Assembly (NCBI RefSeq): GCF_025399195.1
Contig: NW_026252115.1
Location: 218,606 to 282,605, forward strand
Direction of reading: 5' to 3'
DNA length: 64,000 nucleotides
Source: Umbelopsis ramanniana AG
Lineage: Eukaryota > Mucoromycota > Umbelopsidomycetes > Umbelopsidales > Umbelopsidaceae
The position numbers and the translations under genes are program-made. Every line of letters begins with the position of its first letter. Within the stretch, counting starts at the first letter, position 1. Below are positions 39,949 to 58,068 of the stretch, piece by piece. Below the pieces are notes generated by a model. That model searched no databases. It saw only the letters and a list, made by a program, of their open reading frames with translations, and was not told the DNA's origin.

Positions 39949-41195
39949 TCATGACATTGGAAGATTATCATATCTCAAATATGTCTGTCCTCTTTGTCTT
40001 CTCCAAAAGTTGCTGGTTTTAACCATCTCCTTGTCGCACAAAAACCAATACTTTTGAAAAAACACTGGACCAATCTCCCAGCCTTGCGTAAAGAGTGGGT
40101 CACCGCCCCAAACATTACAATGCTCGTGAAGGTCATCCATGAACCTCTCAATGTCAATCACACTTAGATTCAATATAATTCGATCCCTCATGGACGCCCA
40201 AGGAATGATATCAATAACAGGAGGATGTGTAATCGTCAACTGCAACTGGGAAGGTTTGAATATATCGGGCGATACCGTAAATTCGGTATCCAGCATGGTT
40301 TCCCTGATACCGGTGAATAAAGAGCAAATTCTAGCCATGGTAAACGATTGTAGGTCTATTCGTCTTGGTACTGTGGTTCCCAGGGGGGTTTGGCAGCATT
40401 CGTTCATCAAGTTCTTCAATATGGGACTGAATGAAGATGCCTGTTGTGAAAAGTGAGGATGTTCCGGTATTTTCGTTTGGTCTTCACCAACATGGATCAG
40501 TTTCGCAATGGCGTTGATTTGTTCTGCTGAAGCTATCGGTGGTTGATAGGATGATTCTATCTGATTGTCTCTATAAGCGGACGACTTGTTGGCCAACGTA
40601 TCATCGTCGGCATCTATTATGGTAAAGCTAATGTTCGAGTTAGTTTAATTAAAACTCCCTCTATAGCGGAACTTTCTAGTAAACTGTTTGTTGGCTTACA
40701 TGTTATCATGGCTCTTTTCACTTTCAGACGTTTCAGAGCTAGTAGTCGCTTTTTCAAAGGTTAGCTCTACATTGACAGGGAGGGCAAGTTCATTGGCCTC
40801 TTGCTGAATACGCAATCGACTTTCCTCCTTCAACTGCTCTGCCATTTTGACAATGAGGGCTGACAGTTGTAAATTCTTGTCATTGGCAGCCTGAAGTGCG
40901 GTTCGGTGATGTTGAACCTTGACGTCTTCGCTTTTACTTAACAGTGCAATTTGCTGTTCGAGATCTTGGATATATTGCTGCCGCCTCTTGCCTGCCAAAC
41001 AGTATATTAACGCCTCAGTGGCACACAACCGGTACAAGCCTTACACAACTTACGATATTGCCTCTGTGCTATCTTATTATAGTCTCTCTTCTTGGAACTT
41101 TCCTCATTGCTCGAAGATGGGTCTTTTTCCAGCATGTTGTGTGGATGGAGAGCAGGTTCATATTTTCCTGCTGAAATTTTAAAAATTCGTACCAT
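39949..41195 (-). CDS. bZIP transcription factor with C-terminal DUF3425 domain (370 aa, 3 exons)
   Basis: Exons are 39949-40627, 40700-40991 and 41054-41195, 1113 bases in all. The basic region KKRDYNKIAQRQYRKRRQQY crosses the first intron and is followed by leucine heptads. The C-terminal half has the DUF3425 pattern, with THPPVIDIIPWASMRDRII near residue 280 and a WGGDPLFTQGWEIGP region. Fungal factors of this type often control nutrient use or secondary metabolism. It lies 206 bases beyond the end of the flavin monooxygenase gene, same strand, so it is a candidate regulator of the neighbouring aromatic genes. The 5' end is uncertain: TTTCAG just downstream of the chosen ATG could be a splice acceptor. 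Confidence 0.85.
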
Positions 41196-41400
41196 GTGAT
41201 TAATAATGCTACGGAAAGTAGCCCACAGCCTGCACGCACCGGCAGTTCTTGCCACTTTTCGTACGCCTTAACGTTCTAAGACTCAGCGCTGTTGGCCCGT
41301 GCTTCAATCACTCATTCATGCAAAAATGGTTGCTTTATTGAAAATTCTCGATGATGGGGCAATGCCGTTGCCTAAATGATTTTATTCGGTCCCTACCATT

Positions 41401-43269
41401 TCATGATAGTAGCTTGGCCAGACTTGCTGCAGCTTCATCTAACTCAGTCTTATCATTGCAAGTTGCGAAAACATATCGGTCTGGTCTCACGATTATGTAC
41501 TTGCTGTTAGCAACCTCTTTTTTGATGCGGTAAATATCAAAATCTACAGGCTTGAGGCGTCCTTCGCATAGGGGTGAGGCAGCAAATTCTTCAATGGTAG
41601 CAATGCGGGCGATCCGGAAGCTATCGTTTGTGTTACGTTCTAGTGGATCATGGACAAGGAAAGTTGCATCTTGGATAGCCAACTCGCCGTTGGAAAGGTT
41701 CTCAATATCAACAAGAGCGTCAGCGGCATCGGCAACCTCGGATAGTTTGTCCACTAATACGACCAGTTGGAAGAGGCATTTTTTAGAGCCGTCAAATATC
41801 AGATCGTCAGTGAAAACGATCTCCGCATGGTCATTGCCAGAGGTCAACCGTTTGGCAAATCTTTGAGGGAAAAGAAGACCACCAGCACCTTTTGGAATAA
41901 AAGCCATACCCTCTTCAAATTTATACTTGTGCAGTCCATTTCGAGTATCGCCTTTGGCCAGAATACGGCGCACTTGAGGAATTTGTTGCAGAGTCCAAAG
42001 ACCCCAATCTCGGATGAAGTTTTTGAGGAAATTCTTCTCTGTTACGAAACGACCGTTTTCGACCGTTGTGTTCAAAGACCTATCAAGTTGTTGTTTGCGT
42101 TCTGTGTACCATCCTTTGAAGAGCAATTCATAGTCCTTGAAATTGGATCGACAGGCTACCGCTAATCTCCACGCCAAACCGGAAGCGTCTCTAAACCCGG
42201 AGGCAATGCCTTGACCACCAAAGGGAGGGAACACATGGGCTGCATCACCACTAAGGAGAACACGACCAAGAGACCACTTGTTACAACTGCGAGCGGCAAA
42301 TGTAAACGGCCTGCAGCGTAGAGTTTCAATGCAGTCTTCAGGATAAGTCACGTCTTGCGGGAGACCATATTTCCTTCCAGAGTGGGTAATATACGGGAAG
42401 ACGATTTTCTTGATACTCTCATATTCAGACATCTTGTGCCCGTCTTCCTCTTGGATGACGACAAATTCGAATCGCCACAAGCGTTCGTCCGGTGGGCCAA
42501 ATCTGCCGCAAACCGCGGGTCGTTCAGGATTACATAGAAATCTGAAGTCTGACGGAAAGAACTTCTCATAAACGTCTTCAGGGGTGTAGCCAAGCTTCCA
42601 CAGCGGAAAATTTGGATGCGAGTCTTCTGTAGGAAGGGTAATCTTCCAGTTGAGTGCAACCCAAGTCTCATTATACTTTGTATTGGTGTTTTCCATTATA
42701 ATGCCCTTGGGCTCTAGATATTGTTTTCTGGTAAAGCCAGTCTTGCCATCTGCTGCCACTAGAAATTTTGAACAAATTTTGACGATGGACCCTTCCTTGT
42801 CTTTGTAGTTGACATACACGTTCTCTTGGTCTTCTGAAATGTTCACAACGGTTGATGACGGACGAAAATCAACAGTAGGTTCTCTTGACATTTTCAATCG
42901 CATATTTTTCTCCAATGCCGGTTGCTTGTGACCAAGAAGGCCCATATGGCCACCTCCACCATCACTAAGTCCCATGTCGAAGGTGAGGAAAGGTTGTCTG
43001 TATAGGTCGTTGTGGACTCCAGCGACAAATTTCACTTTTTCCACGTATGTGCCAATGTCTGTGTACACATGACTATACAGCCCAAGGCCCTGCACAAGTC
43101 GGATACCGTCTTCGTCTAGTGCAATACCCCTAGGATCAGTGACAATTTCTTGCTCCTTCTCGAGGACTATGCACCGGATATTCATGATGCCCAGGTATCC
43201 AGCCAGCAAAGCTCCAGTAGGGCCGCAGCCGCAAATGATAACATCAGTGTCTTGTGTTGGCGAAACCAT
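41401..43269 (-). CDS. Class A FAD-dependent aromatic hydroxylase (phenol hydroxylase-like; 622 aa)
   Basis: Single exon. The N-terminal Rossmann motif is VIICGCGPTGALLAGYLG, followed by the LEKE region and the PRGIALDEDG motif. The DG motif is FLVAADGKTGFTRK near residue 185. The GD motif is RVLLSGDAAHVFPPFGGQG near residue 345, then WRLAVA. A C-terminal thioredoxin-like domain, as in phenol hydroxylases, fills the last 170 residues. By family it uses NAD(P)H and O2 to add a hydroxyl group to a phenolic ring. It is divergent from the FAH-fold gene with 256 bases between starts. The lack of introns contrasts with nearby housekeeping genes. Confidence 0.9.
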   Translation of the reverse strand: MVSPTQDTDVIICGCGPTGALLAGYLGIMNIRCIVLEKEQEIVTDPRGIALDEDGIRLVQGLGLYSHVYTDIGTYVEKVKFVAGVHNDLYRQPFLTFDMGLSDGGGGHMGLLGHKQPALEKNMRLKMSREPTVDFRPSSTVVNISEDQENVYVNYKDKEGSIVKICSKFLVAADGKTGFTRKQYLEPKGIIMENTNTKYNETWVALNWKITLPTEDSHPNFPLWKLGYTPEDVYEKFFPSDFRFLCNPERPAVCGRFGPPDERLWRFEFVVIQEEDGHKMSEYESIKKIVFPYITHSGRKYGLPQDVTYPEDCIETLRCRPFTFAARSCNKWSLGRVLLSGDAAHVFPPFGGQGIASGFRDASGLAWRLAVACRSNFKDYELLFKGWYTERKQQLDRSLNTTVENGRFVTEKNFLKNFIRDWGLWTLQQIPQVRRILAKGDTRNGLHKYKFEEGMAFIPKGAGGLLFPQRFAKRLTSGNDHAEIVFTDDLIFDGSKKCLFQLVVLVDKLSEVADAADALVDIENLSNGELAIQDATFLVHDPLERNTNDSFRIARIATIEEFAASPLCEGRLKPVDFDIYRIKKEVANSKYIIVRPDRYVFATCNDKTELDEAAASLAKLLS

Positions 43270-43525
43270 AAAAGTGTGGGTGTTAAAGAAGGTAACAGGT
43301 GCTTTTTTTTGGCGGATTATATAAATCTATGATTCTGGATTCAATCGGATAAATTGGGAACGCGAGGATGTGTGGGTAATTGGATGGTGGAAGAAATTGG
43401 ACGGAAATCTTCGCCTAAACTTTCTAGGCGTCCCGTGAAACAATGTCCGCGGTTACAGCCAGGCACTACATAAAACCAGACTCTATTCTGTCAGCATTTT
43501 TACACCTTCATTCAGAAATAACATC
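43270..43525. promoter_or_regulatory. Divergent promoter, aromatic hydroxylase / FAH-fold hydrolase
   Basis: 256 bases between two opposite starts of functionally related genes, suggesting joint control. TATATAAT is seen at about 43318-43325 near the hydroxylase, and CTACATAAAAC at about 43466-43476, 55 bases before the FAH start. Confidence 0.5.
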
Positions 43526-44380
43526 ATGTCCTGGACTCATTTGATTCGCTTTATTGCCAAGGAAGACGCCAAGGTCCATTTGGGTCAACTTGTCGACACT
43601 GCTCGTGATATTGGTTTGGACAGTATCTCCGGACATCCCATCACTGCCTACGAGGTACAAGGAAGTGTTTTTGATGGCAAGGTTACAGGAAAGGAGCTTA
43701 CAGTCCAGCAACTGCTTTGTCCAATTACCCGAGACCAATGCGACTACATTCGTTGCGTTGGACTTAACTACAAAGATCACGCCGAGGAAGCCAACCTTCC
43801 TCTTCCCAAGGTCCCCATCCTATTCAGCAAGCCTCGATCAGCCCTAATTGGTCCCTACCCAGAAGCCGTTAAGATTCCAAAGTGTGCACAAGATGAAACA
43901 AGTGACTACGAAGCAGAGCTCTGTGTCATCATTGGAAAAACTGGAAGAGACATTAAAGAAGAGGACGCATACAATTATGTTTTGGGTTATACTGCATCCA
44001 ACGATATCAGCGCTAGAAAGCTTCAACTTTCTCAAAGTCAGTGGTGCTTTGGCAAAGGTCTTGATGATTCTATGCCCATTGGTCCTGTGGTTGTGTCGCC
44101 TAGTGTTATTAAGGATCCCCACACTCTCTCCATCAAAGCCATTTACAATGGTACTACCGTCCAAAGTGGCCACACACAAAATATGATCTTCACCATTCCT
44201 CAAATGATCGCATACTTTTCCCAAGGAACCACCCTTGAGGCGGGTACTATCATTGTCACCGGTACTCCTGCTGGTATTGGAATTGTCAAGAACCCCCGTG
44301 TGTTCCTTGAGGATAAATCAGACATTCGAGTTGAGATTGAGAATATTGGAACATTGATAAATAAGGTTGAATATGAATAA
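43526..44380 (+). CDS. Fumarylacetoacetate hydrolase (FAH) family enzyme (284 aa)
   Basis: Single exon. After an N-terminal domain of about 60 residues comes the FAH core: CVGLNYKDHAEEAN, PILFSKPRSALIGP, DYEAELCVIIGKTGRDI, GYTASNDISARKLQ, then KGLDDSMPIGP and the C-terminal IVTGTPAGIGI. The acidic metal ligands (E in YEAELCV, D in NDISAR) are present. FAH-fold enzymes cleave or decarboxylate 2-oxo acids from aromatic ring opening. With a ring hydroxylase on one side and an extradiol dioxygenase on the other, processing of a ring-cleavage product is likely. The exact substrate is not readable. Confidence 0.9.
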   Translation: MSWTHLIRFIAKEDAKVHLGQLVDTARDIGLDSISGHPITAYEVQGSVFDGKVTGKELTVQQLLCPITRDQCDYIRCVGLNYKDHAEEANLPLPKVPILFSKPRSALIGPYPEAVKIPKCAQDETSDYEAELCVIIGKTGRDIKEEDAYNYVLGYTASNDISARKLQLSQSQWCFGKGLDDSMPIGPVVVSPSVIKDPHTLSIKAIYNGTTVQSGHTQNMIFTIPQMIAYFSQGTTLEAGTIIVTGTPAGIGIVKNPRVFLEDKSDIRVEIENIGTLINKVEYE

Positions 44381-45670
44381 ACTTTGTTGGCTTAGTCTGA
44401 TTACAACAGAAACTATTTAGATAGCGCCATTAAACGTAAATGCCTCTTGAGCAATAAACAAGCACCTTTTCTTTTCAATTCTATCACTGTAAACAATGAA
44501 GAACATGTTGCAAGTTTGTACTATCGTGTAACTTTTACATCCTTCTCATTCCTTTTCCAGCAACGTGAGATCCGGCTTGGCAAATTCCCGCTGAGATTCC
44601 ACTGACCTCAACCACCGTGGTTACATTATCTATAGTATTAGATGATGAGCACATGATGAGCTTCCGGCAAGGCCAATTCACAGTGCTACACTAGTGTGCC
44701 AAAGTAGGCAAATATCTGCTTATGATCTATGCCAAACATCTTTTCAAGCAGTTTACATCGAAAATGAAGAGACTCTTATCCATCTATTTAACTCAATTTC
44801 TGCTATGTAATTTATTTTAAATTCAGATACAATTACTGTGCTTAATGTGTGCTGTAACTTCTGGCACATTCACAAACTACATAGTGTATGTTAACATTGG
44901 CATCATTGACATACGGGATAGGGTGAACTTTGGCCGAAATAAAAGTTAAACCGGCCAAAGAAAATGTGCTGATGTTCAATCTGTATTGATAACTTGTTAT
45001 TAATTGGATTGGAGCACGTTGGATGTGTATGAGAAGTTTGAATGATTGGCCAGGGAAGCAAGTGATTGCGAAAGTCAAGACAAAGTGGCATCCCGGAGTT
45101 TGATTCTGCTCTGAAATATTAGCCGGCAAGCCTAGGCAGCGTTAAGGTTCCTCTCACAATGCCCCACACTTCTTGAAACGATTGACCATTCATCGTATTT
45201 GATGCGATGAAAGTAGCATACTATCATTCTCAATTGAAATAAGAAGTGCTTCATTGCTTATACGTTGGAAAATATCTGCCAGATGCCTTGAAATCAGCTT
45301 TTCAGTGCCGCCTTGCCCAATTCACAACAAGAAACTTTGCTCTCCCACATCCCCAATGGGGAATACTCCATCGTCCTTTCCCATAAGAAGTTACACAGCC
45401 TATGTCCTCTACAATTCAAGTGAGTCAATATCAGCGGATATATGACGCCGTTCGATGTGCGAAAAAGTTTTGAGCGGCGTTCGTTGCTTGTGAAAATAGC
45501 AATCATTAGACCGGCCTATCAAATGCATTGGGTTGGTATTTCCGGGAGAAGGCAAGGATGAATTATTACTTGTACTCTGGCGTCTCCCCGCAGTCACCTG
45601 ATTGAAAACTTAGAATATATCAGCGCTGTAAAATATCTGTATCCTGAAACGAAAAAGCTCTTATTCCAAC
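44381..45670. other. 1.3 kb spacer inside the aromatic gene group
   Basis: An 80-residue open stretch on the minus strand (about 44842-45110) alternates hydrophobic and polar residues and has a CTAATATTTCAG acceptor-like sequence at its 5' side, but no upstream exon joins it in frame. I do not call it a gene. No other signal is seen. Confidence 0.4.
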
Positions 45671-46711
45671 ATGAAACCAAATACATATTCTATCGTGCCA
45701 GACACCGTGGAAGCTGAAGGAACAAGCGAGACGCTCGATGACTTCCGAAAAGAATTTTCCATTGATCAGCAAGCACAGATTCGTCTTGTCAAGGTTGCCC
45801 ATATGCGTTACAGACACCCTGACCTGGAGGAAATAACCAGCTTCATGGAGGACTTTGGGATGATTGTTACCAAGAAGTCTGAAGACAAAGTATGGTTCCG
45901 AGGATATAGTAGTGATCAATACGTCTACTATGCCGAGAAAGGTGAACGACAGTTTCTTGGAGGAACTTTTGAGGTTGAGTCCTTTGCCGACCTAGAAAAG
46001 GCTGCTAAGCTCTCTGGTGCTACTGAAATTCAAGAACTCGTTGAAGCTCCCGGAGGTGGCCATCTCGTTACTGTATATGATCCTCTCGGTTTTCCTGTCA
46101 ACTTGATGTATGGCCAAACTCCTGCAGAAGTCCCAGAGCCTCCAACCCAGCCAGTTGTCAACTTTGTAGCTGAAAAATCAAGAAAGAGAGCCTTCCAACG
46201 GTTTCAGCCCGGTCCAGCTGCTGTACACAAATTAGGTCACTTTGGCATGTCCGTTACAGACTTCCCATCACAACTCAAGTTTTACGTGACCAACTTCAAT
46301 ATCGTTCCAACTGATTACCTCTATGTCGAACATGGTGGTCAGAAGATCAGAGCATCCGTCTTTGCTCGTATTGATAGAGGTGAAGATTACGTTGACCATC
46401 ACACCTTCTTCCTCTCTCATGGTGCATCCAATCACGTTCATCACTGCTCCTTCGAAGTACAAGATTACGATGCACAACAATTGGGTCACCAGTGGTTGGC
46501 CAAGAAGGGTTACAAGTCTGTCTGGGGTATTGGTAGACATATTCTTGGATCTCAAATCTTTGATTACTGGTGGGACACGACTGGCAACATGGTTGAGCAC
46601 TATGCTGATGGCGATGTTGTTAACAACAAGACTCCTATAAACTATGTAGCAGCTGGAGATGAATCTCTTGCAGTTTGGGGTCCTGAGCTTCCCAAGATCT
46701 TCCTCTCATAA
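45671..46711 (+). CDS. Two-domain type I extradiol ring-cleavage dioxygenase (VOC fold; 346 aa)
   Basis: Single exon. The N-terminal VOC module (about 38-150) starts VKVAHMRYRHPDLEEITSFM and ends VTVYDPLGFPVNLMYG. The C-terminal module (about 190-310) carries the probable metal triad: His in KLGHFGMSVTDFP, His in NHVHHCSFEV and Glu in GNMVEHYADG. This arrangement is typical of catechol 2,3-dioxygenase and dihydroxybiphenyl dioxygenase, which open a catechol ring next to the two hydroxyls using Fe(II) and O2. The context (hydroxylase, FAH-fold enzyme) fits a meta-cleavage pathway. The substrate is unknown. Confidence 0.88.
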   Translation: MKPNTYSIVPDTVEAEGTSETLDDFRKEFSIDQQAQIRLVKVAHMRYRHPDLEEITSFMEDFGMIVTKKSEDKVWFRGYSSDQYVYYAEKGERQFLGGTFEVESFADLEKAAKLSGATEIQELVEAPGGGHLVTVYDPLGFPVNLMYGQTPAEVPEPPTQPVVNFVAEKSRKRAFQRFQPGPAAVHKLGHFGMSVTDFPSQLKFYVTNFNIVPTDYLYVEHGGQKIRASVFARIDRGEDYVDHHTFFLSHGASNHVHHCSFEVQDYDAQQLGHQWLAKKGYKSVWGIGRHILGSQIFDYWWDTTGNMVEHYADGDVVNNKTPINYVAAGDESLAVWGPELPKIFLS

Positions 46712-47247: not shown

Positions 47248-50200
47248 TTAATCCAGCTTTGGCCGAGAAACAGGCTGTGCAGGAATACCCACCATATCGG
47301 AGTTCTCGATGAATCGCTCGCCCTTCATCAGCAAAGAGAAGTCTCCGAGGTGAGAGCCATCTTCCAAGACACCATCGTACAAAGCAATAGACCATGCTCC
47401 AATCTCGCAGCCATTGCCGATCTTCAAGTAAGACATCTTCATGATGCGGTCCTCAAAGAGATGGGTTTGCAAGGTACAGTCGGCTCGAATAGCACAGTCG
47501 TCTCCGATGGTCAGCAAGTCAGCTTCAGTCACCATGGTGGTTTCCAGCCAGACGTTTTTACCAATCTTGGCACCTAGGAGTCTGAACCACCAGCACACGA
47601 ATGGCGTACCGCGAATATGATTGCAAAGAACCACATTGCTAAGGGCTTCTTCAAGAGCCCCGATGAGTTCGGTTCTCCAAACGTAAAAGCTCCAGAGTGG
47701 CGCTTCTCTTGGAACGTATTTCCACATGATGACATATTTACAAAGTGCAACCAGAAGACAGCAGAAGACCGCAGAAAAAATGTAAGCGAATGGGAAGACC
47801 AGCCAAAAAACCAGCTCGTTGACCCAGTCAAATGCGCTAATGTAGGTAGTTGCGAAGAACAACACCAGAGAAGCGATACCAAAGATAAGTGTTGGAAGAC
47901 CCACTCTCCAGATTTCAACCGATAGACGGGCAATGTAGAGATACCACGGAGGATTGAATGTACGAGAACTGGAAACCGCCTTGGCAGAAGTTGCTCTATT
48001 GGGAAGAAATAATCCTGGGGACCCAAGCCAAGAGGTGCCTTCTGCCACTTCTTGTGAGATACCGTTTGTAAACCCTGGGTCATATGTACAATCCAAGGCT
48101 TCCTGAACTTCCAGGGCAACCAACGTAGAAACTTCGCTTTTTGGGGTGTCAGGACGATCACACTTTGGCCTTGGGCTTTCTTGAAGAGGTGGTCTGGAAC
48201 TGACGCCTAACAGACAGTTATTCTTGATTTCCACACCGGTGGGGACAAAGGCAGAGTTTCCAATGAAGGATTTTTCGCCAATGATAGTATCGGATATTTG
48301 AACCCAGCCATTGCAAATTCGAGGAGGACCAAGGTAGGCAGCATCAGCAATGAAGCTACCATCTTTCATGACCAAGCGATCTGGTGAGCAATGGAAAACA
48401 GTGGAGACTTCGGCAAGTTTTCCTATCTTGGAGCCAAGCATTCTGAACCTGAAGAGAGGCACATATCGAGTAGTCCATATTAGTAAATGTTCAAGAAGAA
48501 AGACATGTAAACTTTTAAAAATGTTCATGGTACTTACCAGATAGGAAGGAATAGAGTAGCATACATAGAATGCAGCATAGCCAAGCTGAGTTGCATAAGG
48601 CAATCTACAAACCACTTGCGACAGTAAAGCCAGCTGTCGACATGGAAAATTTTTCTAGTGGCTTTCGATCTACCAAGTAGCAGCCATTTGATAGCGGCAA
48701 TTTCCAGACATAGGACAAAAATGAAGGAGATTACAAGCAAGACCGACATGACAACTAACCAGTAAACCGAAGTGGTCCGCTCGTCGCCATCTCCTGCAAT
48801 TTCTGAAGTGAGAGGATATGCAAAGGAAGGGTGGTTGATAAGGATGACCATACTGACGCTGCCGGGGATGAGAGCAGCCATAAACACCAGCATCATGCCA
48901 AGGACGAAGAAAGCTTGAATACAGATGGCAAGCCAGTGAGGTAGTCTCCTAGGATCAACAACATCCGGGTAAAGTTCCTTGGAGTTCTCAGCGATATCTG
49001 CAAATTCACAGCTTAATGCCGCTCGCTCACATCGTTCAATGGGAGATCCAGCATATGTATTGCCACTTTCAAGAACGGTTTCTTCGGGTACCATAGAGAA
49101 TTCAGCAATACCAACATCGTCTTGAACGACAGAGTCGACGGCTAAATGAGTGCGAGCCCCAATGTAGCAGTTGGAGCCAATTTCCAAGGGACCAATAACT
49201 AGCCAGCCTTGATATCGTCCATTAGGTTGTTTTTTGCCCATTTTCACAGTATAGCCGTGTAAATGGACATCAATACCAATGCTTGTGTTATCACCGATAT
49301 TGACCATATCAAGACACGAAACATGGCCGGTTCCCATGTATACATTCTTGCCGATTTTTGCTCCCATAGCTCGGTAGATGTAAACAAGAAGTGGAGAACC
49401 TTTGAAGAAGGATAGTGGCAGCATAGTTGTCATACGGTGGACAATCCACCATCTCCAGTAGTAAACTCCGTAAAGAGGATAGACACCAGGCTTGAAACGA
49501 CCGATAATGATCCATTTAGCTGCGATACAAACAATTGGATAAATGGCCCAGGTGATCAAAAGAGAGCATATCATAAGAGCAAAAGCACTATAATCAAATC
49601 TTGCACCATAAATGTTTTGTAGAGTATCATAGTTTGGAGTGTCAGTAGGATGTAAGAGTAGGTCTGAAATAGTGATAGTAAGGTTTTCGCTAGCCTCAAT
49701 GGAAGTGAAGCTCTCAATATTCACATAGGAATACATGAGATAGGGCACCATCAGTTGCATGGAAGCAAACACAAACACCAGGTAGAGGGAAATGAACATG
49801 AAGATGTTTTTGACGAACCAGTTAACGTTGGCGGGACCAGGGGGGATCACTCTTATGGGCGGTGATCCAAGAACGGTGTCCATTTCAGAGTTAATAGAGG
49901 CTGAGCTTCCGGAAGACTTTTGGGAATAAAATTCAAGACGTCCTGAGAACTCCTCCAATTTGCGGTACTTGTAAACATCAATCATGGTCACATCTCGGTA
50001 TTCAGCCAGAGCGCGTAGGCTTGAAACAAACTTGGCAGCTACCATGGAGTGGCCACCCAATTCGAAGAAGTCGGAATCCGGCTCTAAGGTTTGGTCAGTC
50101 AGATGCAGTACAGTTCTCCATAGCTGTGCCACCTTTCGCTGGGTTGGCGTCAACAAGTTGCTTACGACGGTCAAGTCACTGTCTGAACTGGGAACCTGAA

Positions 50201-52943
50201 TATTGACTAGTTCAATGACAAGTATCAGCATTGGCTTGGCATTCATGTGAACATTACATAAATACTAATGGTTATTTTCTCTTACACTTTGGAATAACGG
50301 GTTCTGGAAGGGCCTTTCGGTTGATCTTTCCACTTGGCAAAGTCGGTATTTCAGTAATGGTTTGAAAGATGCTTGGAACCATGTAATAGGGAAGACGAGC
50401 CTTGAGAACCTCCTTGAGAAGTGGTTCGTTAAACATCAGGTCATGTTTGAGTACCAAATAGGCTACCAATAGCTCGACAGATTCTTCTGTGGGGTCGTCA
50501 CTCTTGCTTTTCCAGACATTAACGACTGCATTTTCAACTTCTTCGCAGCAGCTGACAATAACGGATTCGATCTCCGATATTTCCACTCGAAAGCCTCTGA
50601 TCTTGACCTGCATATCAATGCGACCGAGATGTTCTATGCTACCGGCTGGTAAGCCTGATGGGCCTTTTCCGGTATGGGAAGGAATGAAGCGAGCAAGATC
50701 TCCAGACTTGTAGAGACGTTGAGAGTGAGCAGAGCCGTTTGAGAAAGGATTGGGAACAAACTTTTCCTGGTTTAAATCGGGGCGGTTCAAGTATCCACGT
50801 GCAACACTAATAGAAATCAAAGTTAATGATAAATTTCTGGATAAAGTTGAAGTCCCTTGAACTTATGCTTACCCAATTCCTCCAATGCAGAGCTCGCCGA
50901 TGGCACCAATTGGTACAGGGTTCATGAACGCATCCAGAATGTACACCTCGTAGTTTGGAACAACCGTACCAATAGTGACGTTCACATCTTCAGGTTTGCA
51001 GTCGCCAAAGGTGGCAATGACTAAATCAATGTTCGTTAATAGGCAAAAAAAAATTTGGATGAATGTATTTCATCTTGTTGCATTTAATCATTAATACCTG
51101 TTGCCTCTGTTGGTCCGTAGGTATTGACCATTCGTCTTTTTCCGTTCAGACTCCATTTCTCAATGACGTCTTTTGGGCAAGACTCACCACCGACAATCAA
51201 TAGTTTGACGGTCGGCAGTAGGTAATCATCGCTTAATTCATTCTCTGAAATGCCAATGCTCATCATGTTCAACATGGTTGGGACACAGGAAAGGACAGTG
51301 ATATTTGCTTGGTTGATGAACTGTGCTAATTGAGCGCCAGAGTGCATCATATCTTCCGTAGGGATGTATAGAGTAGCACCGTTGAAGAAGGCCAGCCAAA
51401 TGGTTTCAATGGATGCATCAAAAGCCAATGAAAAGTTTTGAAATACCACATCCTTATCGGACAAGGGAAAGATAATCGACTCGGATAATACAAGATTGAC
51501 AGCACTGCGATGTTCAATTATGCAACCTTTGGGGTTTCCGGTAGTACCTGAAAAATAATCGAATTCAATATTGATGGTTTCACTTTTGTTTATAATTTAG
51601 AATCTTCAGTTTGAATGGTCAAAGCAAAATTTACCAGAGGTGTAGATCACATAAGCAGGTCTTTCAACACTTGTGTTCTTTCTTTTGTGAGTGACCATTC
51701 CATCGATGAAGGCGCATTCTCGGTCTACGATCTTGGTGCTTGAGATTTCTTCCCATATAAGAACTTGAGTTCTAATGCTTTGACCTTGGCTTTTTTGCTC
51801 TTCTAGAAAGTCCTTCATCTTGAGTCCGAGCTCAGAAGTAGTTATGATAAACTTGGCTTGGCAATCTTGCAGGATATAGCATATTCTTTCCATGGGAAAA
51901 GCAGGGTCCAGAGGAACATAGGCGGATCCGCTTTTAAGAATACCCAACATAGCAATGTAGGATTCAGCACAGCGGGGAAAAAGATGAGCAATGAAGACTT
52001 CTTCATCATCAAAGGTGTAGGCTCGTCTTGTTTTTTTGTTGTCTTGAGGGTAAGCGTTGATGTATCTTGCAACAACGTCGGCCAAAAAATTAGCGGTATA
52101 GTAAGTATACCTTACAGGATTCTCAGGATCTTCTTGTACAATGGCAAGGTTTTCAGGATGCATTGATGCCTGCCTTTCAAACAGATTTTGCAAAAGTGCG
52201 GCGTTCATTCCAAGCTTCTGATGGACATCAGGGTGAGGGCACTTGTTCCAAACGTTTAACAGAGTTTTGTTTTCTTCGGATTCAAGGATAGGAACTTCAT
52301 ACAGAGCATAACTGGCAAACTCAAGTGGAGCAGTACGGAGACCGTTCAGCATACAAAGCCAGTGGGACTTGATATTGATAGCGTTGGGATACACAGAGGA
52401 CAAGAGGTTGGAGAACGAAAAGATGGTCATGAAGCAGTCTTGAATGTCAATAAAGTGCAAGTAAAGTCCACCGGTTCTGGACATTTCCACTATTTCTGGA
52501 GACTCGTTGTCGCGATCGTTGATATTGATGTATAATACGTCTTGTATGTTAGGTAGAGAGGACTCTGGCAATTCTGCTGACAAGGTGCTCAATACATGGC
52601 TGACCAAGTTGAGGAAAGTTGATCTTGGAGTAATGGAAACATTGAACTCGATGGTCTTGATGGTCATTTGTACACTGGAAGTTCTGTATGCGACATTCAT
52701 TTTGAAGCTGGGAGATGATGTGTAGCGAAACAGCAGTAGTCCACATAGAGATACAAAGACAGGCAAGGAGCCTTCCATGCCAGCGTTGACGTTGTCATCA
52801 GAGGAGGGTCTCCATTCAGGAACAGCTCTTAATAGAATCGACAGAGAGTTACCAAGAGTAATCCTCTCATCAGAACCAACAAAGCAATGGATGTTGAAAG
52901 GAAGGTTGCTAATACTATTCAAGTTGGTATCGCTTGAATGCAT
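47248..52943 (-). CDS. Epsilon-poly-lysine-synthetase-like NRPS: A-T-(TM-LbH)x3 (1765 aa, 6 exons)
   Basis: Exons are 47248-48448, 48538-50206, 50286-50806, 50873-51020, 51098-51547 and 51635-52943, 5298 bases in all. Residues 1-240 resemble a degenerate condensation domain. The adenylation domain (about 250-805) has YVIYTSGTTGNPKG, NTYGPTEAT, GDLARF and PSGKINRKAL. The carrier domain has the phosphopantetheine site LGGHSM at about 863. The C-terminal 850 residues hold six membrane helices in pairs and three hexapeptide-repeat (left-handed beta-helix) domains, each opening with the (R/G)-x-(L/M)-G-(A/S)-K-I-G-K motif. This is the layout of Streptomyces Pls, which makes epsilon-poly-L-lysine. 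The specificity residues are lysine-like. It is probably membrane-bound and makes a homopolymer of a basic amino acid. Confidence 0.9.
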
Positions 52944-57066: not shown

Positions 57067-58068
57067 CTATGCGTAGGTCTCGTCCTTGCGGAGTCTGTAC
57101 TTGAGTTCATCATCCCAGAGCAATTCGTTCTTGTACTTGCGAAGAGGAGCTTCAGGGAAGGTCTTGGGAGAGATACCATACTTCCAGGTGGAGGGGCAGA
57201 TAGCGATGTAACGAGCATAACTGAAGAAAACAAAGAATGAGTACGTGGTGAAAGACTAAAATCAATAAAACATCGGCGAGGTCTTCACTTACCCGCCAGT
57301 ACCACCAGCAAGCTTGGGGAAACCAATGTTAACGAGACATCCCTTGGGAGCAACCTTGTCCAAGTTGGCAACACCTTCAGCCTGAGGATGACCGTGGTGC
57401 AAAACCCAGTCCTCAGATTCCAAAGTAGGAGTGTCATCAGTATCCAAGGGTTCGTGACCGTGGAACAAGATGCTTCTCTGGTTGTGGAGGTACTTGATGG
57501 CAGGAAGTGTAATACCAGGGAACTTGGTCAAGAGGGGAAGTTCCAAGGATGGCCATTTCTTGGACCAGTCGGAGCGAATGAAGACAACAGAGCCCTTGGG
57601 GATCTTGCCATATTTCTTTTCATAAGCGTGGATATCAGCGACTTCCATCTGGTATCCAAAGTCCTTCTTGACCTTGGCAGTGATGTCAATGACAACCAAA
57701 GGACGAACAGCAACAGTGGCAGGGATTTCGTCGATGGCAGGGCCAAAGGGATCCCAATGAGCAGGGGGATCGAACTGAGTACCCAATTGGTCAGTCTTGA
57801 AGTTATAAGCGGTAGCTTCAAAACCATCCTTGGCATAAGTGTAAATCTCGTTGGTCTTGGGGTCGATGGCGCGAGAGAAGTTGGAGTTACCAAAACCAGC
57901 CCAGACGGGAATGTAAGGAGTGATAGTGTGGGTCAAGTCAATGTACTTGGCGCTTTCCAAATGGTCATAGTACAAAGACCAGAGACCATTAGACTGAGCG
58001 GTGGCAGATGCAGCGAAAGCTGTCTGGAGGAGTGCGGCCGAAGCGAGGACGGTGGAGATGAAGCGCAT
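57067..58068 (-). CDS. Secreted cyclase-family protein (PF04199-like; 309 aa, 2 exons)
   Basis: Exons are 57067-57220 and 57293-58068, 930 bases in all. A signal peptide (MRFISTVLASAALLQTAFA) is followed by IDLTHTITPYIPVW, the metal-site region QLGTQFDPPAHW at about 93-104, GSVVFIRSDWSKKW, FHGHEPLDTDD and QAEGVANLD. The family includes kynurenine formamidase and isatin hydrolase, which hydrolyse amides or lactams using Mn or Zn. The canonical HxGTHxDxPxH is here QxGTQxDxPxH, so two metal-binding histidines are glutamine. Codon use looks strongly biased towards C-ending codons compared with neighbours, suggesting high expression. The substrate is unknown. Confidence 0.88.

What the first reader, a model, noticed from the sequence alone, without database searches (positions are those of the whole stretch)
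47248..52943. Epsilon-poly-lysine-synthetase-like NRPS
The A-T core is followed by six membrane helices and three left-handed beta-helix domains, the architecture of Streptomyces Pls, which polymerises a single amino acid without a thioesterase. Homopoly(amino acid) synthetases are known from some ascomycetes, to my recollection; one in a probable Mucoromycota genome would suggest an antimicrobial polycation made by this fungus.
Basis: partly seen in the sequence, partly recalled or inferred. Interest (0 to 1): 0.9.

Follow-up and report, generated by a model that had tools for sequence, protein, structure and literature searches.

The report
Fungal enzyme probably making polylysine
This soil mould carries an intact gene for a membrane enzyme that probably strings lysine units into an antimicrobial polymer; such enzymes are known from bacteria and a few other fungi, but this one sits on a different branch and keeps half of an older peptide-making domain at its front end.

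Summary
The minus-strand gene 52943..47248 has six exons and encodes 1765 residues: adenylation and carrier domains, three pairs of hydrophobic helices and three beta-helix domains. The terminal domain passes NCBI's cut-off for Pls/PosA-family synthetases (504 against 423 bits). The genome is Umbelopsis ramanniana AG (Mucoromycota). The substrate pocket, DAESIGTVIK, shares nine of ten residues with Streptomyces Pls and differs from ornithine and diaminobutyrate types, so L-lysine is the likely substrate and epsilon-poly-L-lysine the likely product. Neither was tested.

A chytrid homologue and some unnamed, apparently bacterial relatives share it. Identity to Streptomyces Pls is 28-34%, whereas the ascomycete Epls is 51% identical to S. 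albulus Pls by its authors, so one shared transfer is unlikely; a deep common origin with Pls is not excluded (AU p = 0.20). U. ramanniana has a second copy with the same five intron sites.

It is a real new member of a known family in a variant architecture. Polymer, chain length and antimicrobial role are predictions. Structure prediction could not be run.

The parts
47248..52943 (-). Whole Pls/PosA-family synthetase gene; exons 52943-51635, 51547-51098, 51020-50873, 50806-50286, 50206-48538, 48448-47248; 1765 aa
   Evidence: orthologue P0001 covers the full length; intron sites agree with the C92 paralogue
52224..52943 (-). Residues 1-240: C-terminal lobe of a condensation domain, without the HHxxxDG half
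   Evidence: hhalign: fungal against bacterial N-termini E 2.6e-16 (prob 98.7), bacterial against canonical C domains 1.4e-27 (99.8), fungal plus chytrid against C domains 5.9e-6 (85.4), unrelated control 0.49 (0.1). Against: by plain tblastn the window's own N-terminus reaches only E 0.004 and the chytrid's 0.37; Pfam finds nothing there
50320..52181 (-). Adenylation domain (about residues 255-798, over exons 1-4) with YTSGTTG, NTYGPTE, GRIDMQVKIRGFRVE and PSGKINRK intact
51098..51419 (-). Exon 2 stretch holding most of the substrate pocket; code DAESIGTVIK = residues 480, 481, 484, 523, 554, 556, 579, 587, 588, 796 (587 straddles the junction with exon 3, 588 is in exon 3, 796 in exon 4)
49941..50135 (-). 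Carrier (T) domain, about residues 834-898; phosphopantetheine serine S863 in ELGGHSM
   Evidence: PF00550, motif position
49500..49826 (-). First hydrophobic pair, residues 937-968 and 1013-1045
48945..49499 (-). C1, left-handed beta-helix domain (residues 1046-1230)
   Evidence: PDB matches at about residues 1082-1226; hexapeptide register reached by 14 of 2000 shuffles
48666..48944 (-). Second hydrophobic pair, residues 1231-1268 and 1286-1323
47914..48665 (-). C2, left-handed beta-helix domain (residues 1324-1544; interrupted by intron 48537-48449)
   Evidence: PF00132 above its cut-off; weak PDB matches, best E 0.62; register test not significant, 176 of 2000
47713..47913 (-). Third hydrophobic pair, residues 1545-1572 and 1575-1611
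47251..47712 (-). C3, left-handed beta-helix domain (residues 1612-1765)
   Evidence: PDB hexapeptide transferase 3ixc, E 0.0027; register test not significant, 118 of 2000
47446..47469 (-). QTHLFEDR motif (residues 1693-1700); candidate catalytic or acceptor-binding site
   Evidence: Q, T, H, L, F, D and R invariant in 43 of 43 rows of alignment A1. In the 12 rows the Azospirillum row has QTHLYEDR and the C18 protein lacks the motif. The role is inference

Best explanation
A membrane-bound, single-module NRPS-like synthetase of the Pls/PosA family that activates L-lysine and most likely polymerises it to epsilon-poly-L-lysine or short epsilon-oligolysine. Shown from sequence: intact A and T domains, a lysine-type pocket, three helix pairs and three beta-helix domains, a condensation-domain C-lobe in front, no thioesterase found. 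Inferred from Pls: lysine is adenylated, loaded on the carrier thiol, then passed to the C1-C3 assembly at the membrane, where the epsilon-amine of one lysine attacks the thioester or the growing chain, repeatedly, until the chain leaves. The C-lobe cannot catalyse condensation by the classical route because the HHxxxDG half is absent; it probably serves as a rigid platform for the A domain, as in full modules (inference).
For: TIGR02353 over its cut-off. Pocket DAESIGTVIK against DAESIGTVVK in Streptomyces Pls; the plasmid protein used as Pls matches the solved Pls A domain 7WEW at 1033 bits. PosA reads DMEHNGTVSK, and a protein beside a diaminobutyrate transaminase-family gene DFECLSAVTK. 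1 of 160 A-domain hits in the 58 loci without a Pls-type match has DAESIGTV[IV]. Papers: lysine-activating members have Ala at pocket position 2, and Glu at position 3 is conserved across the family (PMC10522769, passages); pockets like those of confirmed Pls were taken to mean lysine (PMC8117764, passages). Conserved QTHLFxDR. Homologues in U. vinacea, U. isabellina and Umbelopsis sp. AD052. Two PF01648 (phosphopantetheinyl transferase) matches in the genome.
Against: No expression or product data. Identity to Streptomyces Pls is 34% (A-T) and 28% (terminal domain). No peptidase like the one beside bacterial pls (PMC8117764) was recognised next to the gene, by eye over the open frames and with Pfam on four neighbours. 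The nearest bacterial relatives are uncharacterised. The C-lobe departs from Pls. A survey placed most fungal sequences in the ornithine branch (PMC10522769, section 10).
Confidence: 0.65

Rival explanations
1. The enzyme activates lysine but transfers it, once or a few times, to another amine (polyamine, amino sugar, lipid or peptide) instead of building a homopolymer.
For: Solved proteins matched by the beta-helix domains are named as acting on varied acceptors. The same genome holds a relative whose A domain is of acyl-CoA-ligase type, joined to a Pls-like terminal domain (209 bits, below the cut-off), so that domain is not tied to amino-acid polymers.
Against: The family members whose product is given in the passages I saw make homopolymers (PMC10522769, PMC7179176, PMC8117764).
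Confidence: 0.2
2. The substrate is another dibasic amino acid (beta-lysine, ornithine, arginine), giving a different cationic polymer.
For: Pocket position 9 is Ile instead of Val; most sequences from fungi fell in the ornithine branch in a published survey (PMC10522769, section 10).
Against: Ornithine-type pockets here read DMEHNG; the published epsilon-poly-beta-lysine pocket is DGESISVVNK. The window code keeps the Ala that goes with lysine.
Confidence: 0.12
3. The gene is a bacterial contaminant, a decayed copy or otherwise not functional in the fungus.
For: Apart from 7 fungal proteins (the window's own and six of the 120 listed hits), the listed relatives are bacterial, metagenomic or unnamed, with one transcriptome entry.
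Against: Five introns at the same sites as in the C92 paralogue; a 282,605-base contig with eukaryote-type neighbours by eye; intact motifs; a 93% identical orthologue.
Confidence: 0.03

Closest known systems
[quoted passage not shown] A domain solved as 7WEW)
   Same: A-T, terminal domain over TIGR02353's cut-off, nine of ten pocket residues, QTHLFxDR
   Different: Condensation C-lobe in front here; 34% (A-T) and 28% (terminal) identity; eukaryotic gene with introns
Epls of Epichloe festucae (Ascomycota)
   Same: Fungal, A-T plus tandem C1-C3, lysine pocket (PMC7179176, passages)
   Different: Epls is 51% identical to S. albulus Pls by its authors; the Umbelopsis protein is far less like Streptomyces Pls. 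I did not have the Epls sequence for a direct comparison
PosA, delta-poly-L-ornithine synthetase (Acinetobacter baumannii)
   Same: Same family and layout; published model of three packed beta-helices over six helices (PMC10522769, passages)
   Different: Pocket DMEHNGTVSK against DAESIGTVIK; its row was not among those with the N-terminal lobe
Poly-diaminobutyrate and poly-diaminopropionate synthetases
   Same: Same family (PMC10522769, passages)
   Different: Phe at pocket position 2 (published; the DFE rows look alike but have no known product)
Fungal alpha-aminoadipate reductase (LYS2)
   Same: The LYS2 model TIGR03443 aligns from residue 58 through the A domain (189.9 bits against a cut-off of 1030.1)
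   Different: LYS2 ends in a reductase (recalled); here a Pls-type terminal domain

Membership tests
Pls/PosA family (TIGR02353) | Terminal domain above the curated cut-off of 423.1 bits | tested here: met
   504.1 bits for the spliced protein; C92 paralogue 511.0, Streptomyces Pls 657.9. Unspliced, no single piece reached the cut-off
Pls/PosA family (TIGR02353) | A and T domains upstream, no classical condensation or thioesterase domain | tested here: met
   the N-terminal lobe lacks the HHxxxDG half
Pls/PosA family (TIGR02353) | Six transmembrane helices in three pairs | tested here: met
   By hydropathy only
Pls/PosA family (TIGR02353) | Three left-handed beta-helix (C1-C3) domains | tested here: met
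   By sequence only: C1 clear, C2 by Hexapep and weakly, C3 by 3ixc at E 0.0027. No structure model could be made
[quoted passage not shown]
   DAESIGTVIK against DAESIGTVVK
[quoted passage not shown]
   34% and 28% identity; separate branch in the trees, though one clade with Pls is not rejected (AU p = 0.203)
[quoted passage not shown]
   Needs enzyme or culture chemistry
[quoted passage not shown]
   None recognised by eye over the neighbouring frames or with Pfam on four neighbours; spliced or small genes could be missed
PosA (poly-ornithine) | DMEHNG-type pocket | tested here: not met

The most novel reading that the evidence does not exclude
An independent early-fungal line of epsilon-polylysine synthetases, shared by Mucoromycota (Umbelopsis) and a chytrid (Spizellomyces, same pocket), taken over from bacteria whose enzyme still carries half of a condensation domain. 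The half-domain would be a relic showing that the Pls family arose from an ordinary C-A-T module whose condensation step was handed to a membrane beta-helix polymerase.
Probability: 0.35. Interest if true: 0.62.

Novelty: new variant of a known kind. Interest (0 to 1): 0.45.

Why it matters
If it makes polylysine, a soil mould outside the Dikarya becomes a eukaryotic source of a polycation used as a food preservative, made by an enzyme only about 30% identical to the Streptomyces one. The retained condensation half-domain gives a concrete lead on how this polymerase family evolved from ordinary peptide synthetases, and how an NRPS can build chains without a condensation domain.

Tried and rejected
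N-terminal region as a mere A-domain extension: rejected, since profile comparison shows a condensation C-lobe. The link is indirect for the fungi: by tblastn the window's N-terminus reached only E 0.004 and the Spizellomyces one 0.37 against 58 canonical loci. Pfam gave sub-threshold Condensation matches in 3 of 6 proteins scanned and none in the U. vinacea N-terminus. A homologue search with the first 245 residues of P0001 returned only P0001 itself, although P0002-P0005 share the region.

Ordinary gene cluster: three neighbours on one side are an FAD monooxygenase, a FAA hydrolase and a glyoxalase/dioxygenase-superfamily protein; they look like aromatic catabolism, not peptide synthesis. 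Bacterial neighbourhoods in five loci (L021-L024, L026) showed no partner gene common to all by eye; the two Schlesneria loci share theirs.

Simple independence from Pls: the trees put the fungi far from Pls, but holding fungi and Pls together was not rejected (AU p = 0.203; the run had not finished), so I claim only that one transfer shared with Epls is unlikely. Support for the fungal clade beside the C-lobe-bearing group was 86 and 80 with the long rows in and 96 with eight rows removed; these are quick trees with SH-aLRT only, midpoint-rooted.

Epichloe Epls was sought through the Streptomyces Pls search; no Epichloe row is named among the 120 listed. The hexapeptide register test was clear for C1 only.

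Literature: no paper in the held library has both 'Umbelopsis' and 'poly-L-lysine'. 'Umbelopsis' with 'nonribosomal peptide synthetase' gave 9 papers; of these I read passages of PMC8070225 only (12 of 16 places), which named no such enzyme. One search listed 15 of 1,907 papers, none holding 'Umbelopsis'. The main text of PMC10522769 has neither Umbelopsis nor Spizellomyces; its supplementary table could not be read, so the sequence may be listed there. Searches are search listings only.
Full report
What is there. The finding's coordinates are exactly a start codon at 52943 and a stop ending at 47248 on the minus strand. Six exons with GT..AG introns join into one frame. Comparison with the U. 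vinacea orthologue moved one acceptor to 50206, giving 1765 residues. The genome is Umbelopsis ramanniana AG: its contig C92 has 54371 bases, the same as the contig of the NCBI protein P0004 named for that strain, and P0004 maps without mismatch on six exons of C92. The species is in Mucoromycota.

Family. The spliced protein scores 504.1 bits against TIGR02353, Pls/PosA family, whose cut-off is 423.1. Searched without splicing, no piece reached the cut-off. Pfam finds AMP-binding, PP-binding and Hexapep, and no condensation or thioesterase domain (searches used the 1757-residue model). Six hydrophobic segments lie in three pairs. C1 resembles solved hexapeptide transferases and carbonic anhydrases; C2 and C3 do so more weakly. 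In the 43 rows of alignment A1, five rows of the Streptomyces Pls search among them, Q, T, H, L, F, D and R of QTHLFxDR are invariant; in another alignment an Azospirillum row has Y for F, and the C18 protein lacks the motif.

Substrate. The ten pocket residues read DAESIGTVIK. The identical code stands in 104 of 126 aligned proteins (the window protein, 120 search hits and five plasmid-record proteins; L018 dropped). Streptomyces Pls has DAESIGTVVK, PosA DMEHNGTVSK, and a protein beside a diaminobutyrate transaminase-family gene DFECLSAVTK. Of 20 bacterial genome loci whose match reaches the terminal domain (20 of the 79; L047, cut short before the pocket, left out), 6 have a DAESIGTV[IV]K code, 10 a DMEHNG code and 4 a DFE code. 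Control: of 160 A-domain hits in the 58 loci whose match stops before the terminal domain, 1 has DAESIGTV[IV], 4 begin DAE, and 3 gave no letters. Published work ties Ala at position 2 to lysine and finds Glu at position 3 conserved in the family (PMC10522769, passages), and takes pockets like those of confirmed Pls as strong evidence for lysine (PMC8117764, passages). A wide sharing of the code also means that it is not special to this fungus.

The front end. Pfam finds nothing in residues 1-240 of the window protein or of its U. vinacea orthologue. N-termini of four relatives with the same extension match 41 of 58 canonical NRPS loci at E below 1e-4, best 1.7e-9, and in 32 of the 41 an HHxxxD motif lies upstream of the match in the same open frame. 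The window's own N-terminus reaches only E 0.004 that way, the Spizellomyces one 0.37. Profile comparison: extension of the relatives against condensation domains 1.4e-27, fungal against relatives 2.6e-16, fungal plus chytrid against condensation domains 5.9e-6, control 0.49. It is therefore a C-lobe without the catalytic half. It is present in six Umbelopsis rows, in Spizellomyces and in 15 of the 44 other non-Pls P rows of the 86 rows aligned (more than 60 of 175 positions filled). Two locus rows (L036, L038) also passed that count but were set aside because their frames were read from stop to stop.

Relatives and history. The six Umbelopsis rows form one clade (100), joined by Spizellomyces (99-100). 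The window type (U. ramanniana, U. vinacea, U. isabellina) and the C92 type (U. ramanniana, Umbelopsis sp. AD052) are separate lines, and all five intron sites agree between the window gene and the C92 gene. The nearest group is eight unnamed, apparently bacterial proteins with the C-lobe: support 86 and 80, or 96 after eight rows (Pls and other long ones) were removed. Streptomyces Pls lies on a long separate branch, but a clade of fungi with Pls is not rejected (p = 0.203). Epichloe Epls is 51% identical to S. albulus Pls by its authors (PMC7179176, passages), while the Umbelopsis protein is 34% (A-T) and 28% (terminal domain) identical to Streptomyces Pls, so the two fungal enzymes are unlikely to share one transfer. 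This was not tested with the Epls sequence.

How it most likely works. Shown: the parts. Inferred from Pls: lysine is adenylated, loaded on S863, and passed to the C1-C3 membrane assembly, where epsilon-amines attack successive thioesters. The two PF01648 matches in the genome could supply the carrier's phosphopantetheine. The C-lobe probably stabilises the A domain. The polymer, its length and its antimicrobial use are unproved.

What is new. Fungal members of the family are known (PMC7179176; PMC10522769 section 10). I found no mention in print of one in Umbelopsis in the searches, which cover an open-access library only. The retained C-lobe is not mentioned in the passages I read. I file it as a member of the Pls/PosA family in a variant architecture, and as a probable, unproved epsilon-polylysine synthetase; it fails the identity cut-off by which Pls homologues were counted in PMC8117764.

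Noticed in passing
window 39952-46711: A bZIP-like frame (by eye), an FAD monooxygenase (PF01494), a FAA hydrolase (PF01557) and a glyoxalase/dioxygenase-superfamily protein (PF00903) lie together, probably an aromatic-ring degradation cluster beside the synthetase gene.
   Followed up: partly
L102:219-5612 (minus), genome contig C18: A third protein joins an acyl-CoA-ligase-type A domain and a carrier domain to a Pls-like terminal domain (209 bits, below the cut-off); an MFS-like and a TauD-like frame lie nearby by eye. It may transfer an acyl group rather than an amino acid.
   Followed up: partly
P0015, P0016, P0054, P0103: Relatives with a fused phosphopantetheinyl transferase domain (PF01648); on a Sphingomonas plasmid such a gene directly follows the synthetase gene (L020).
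   Followed up: no
P0065: A relative from a eukaryote transcriptome collection groups with planctomycete Schlesneria proteins, so it is probably a contaminant.
   Followed up: no
window 57289-58068: Putative cyclase family protein (PF04199) with a signal-peptide-like start by eye.
   Followed up: no
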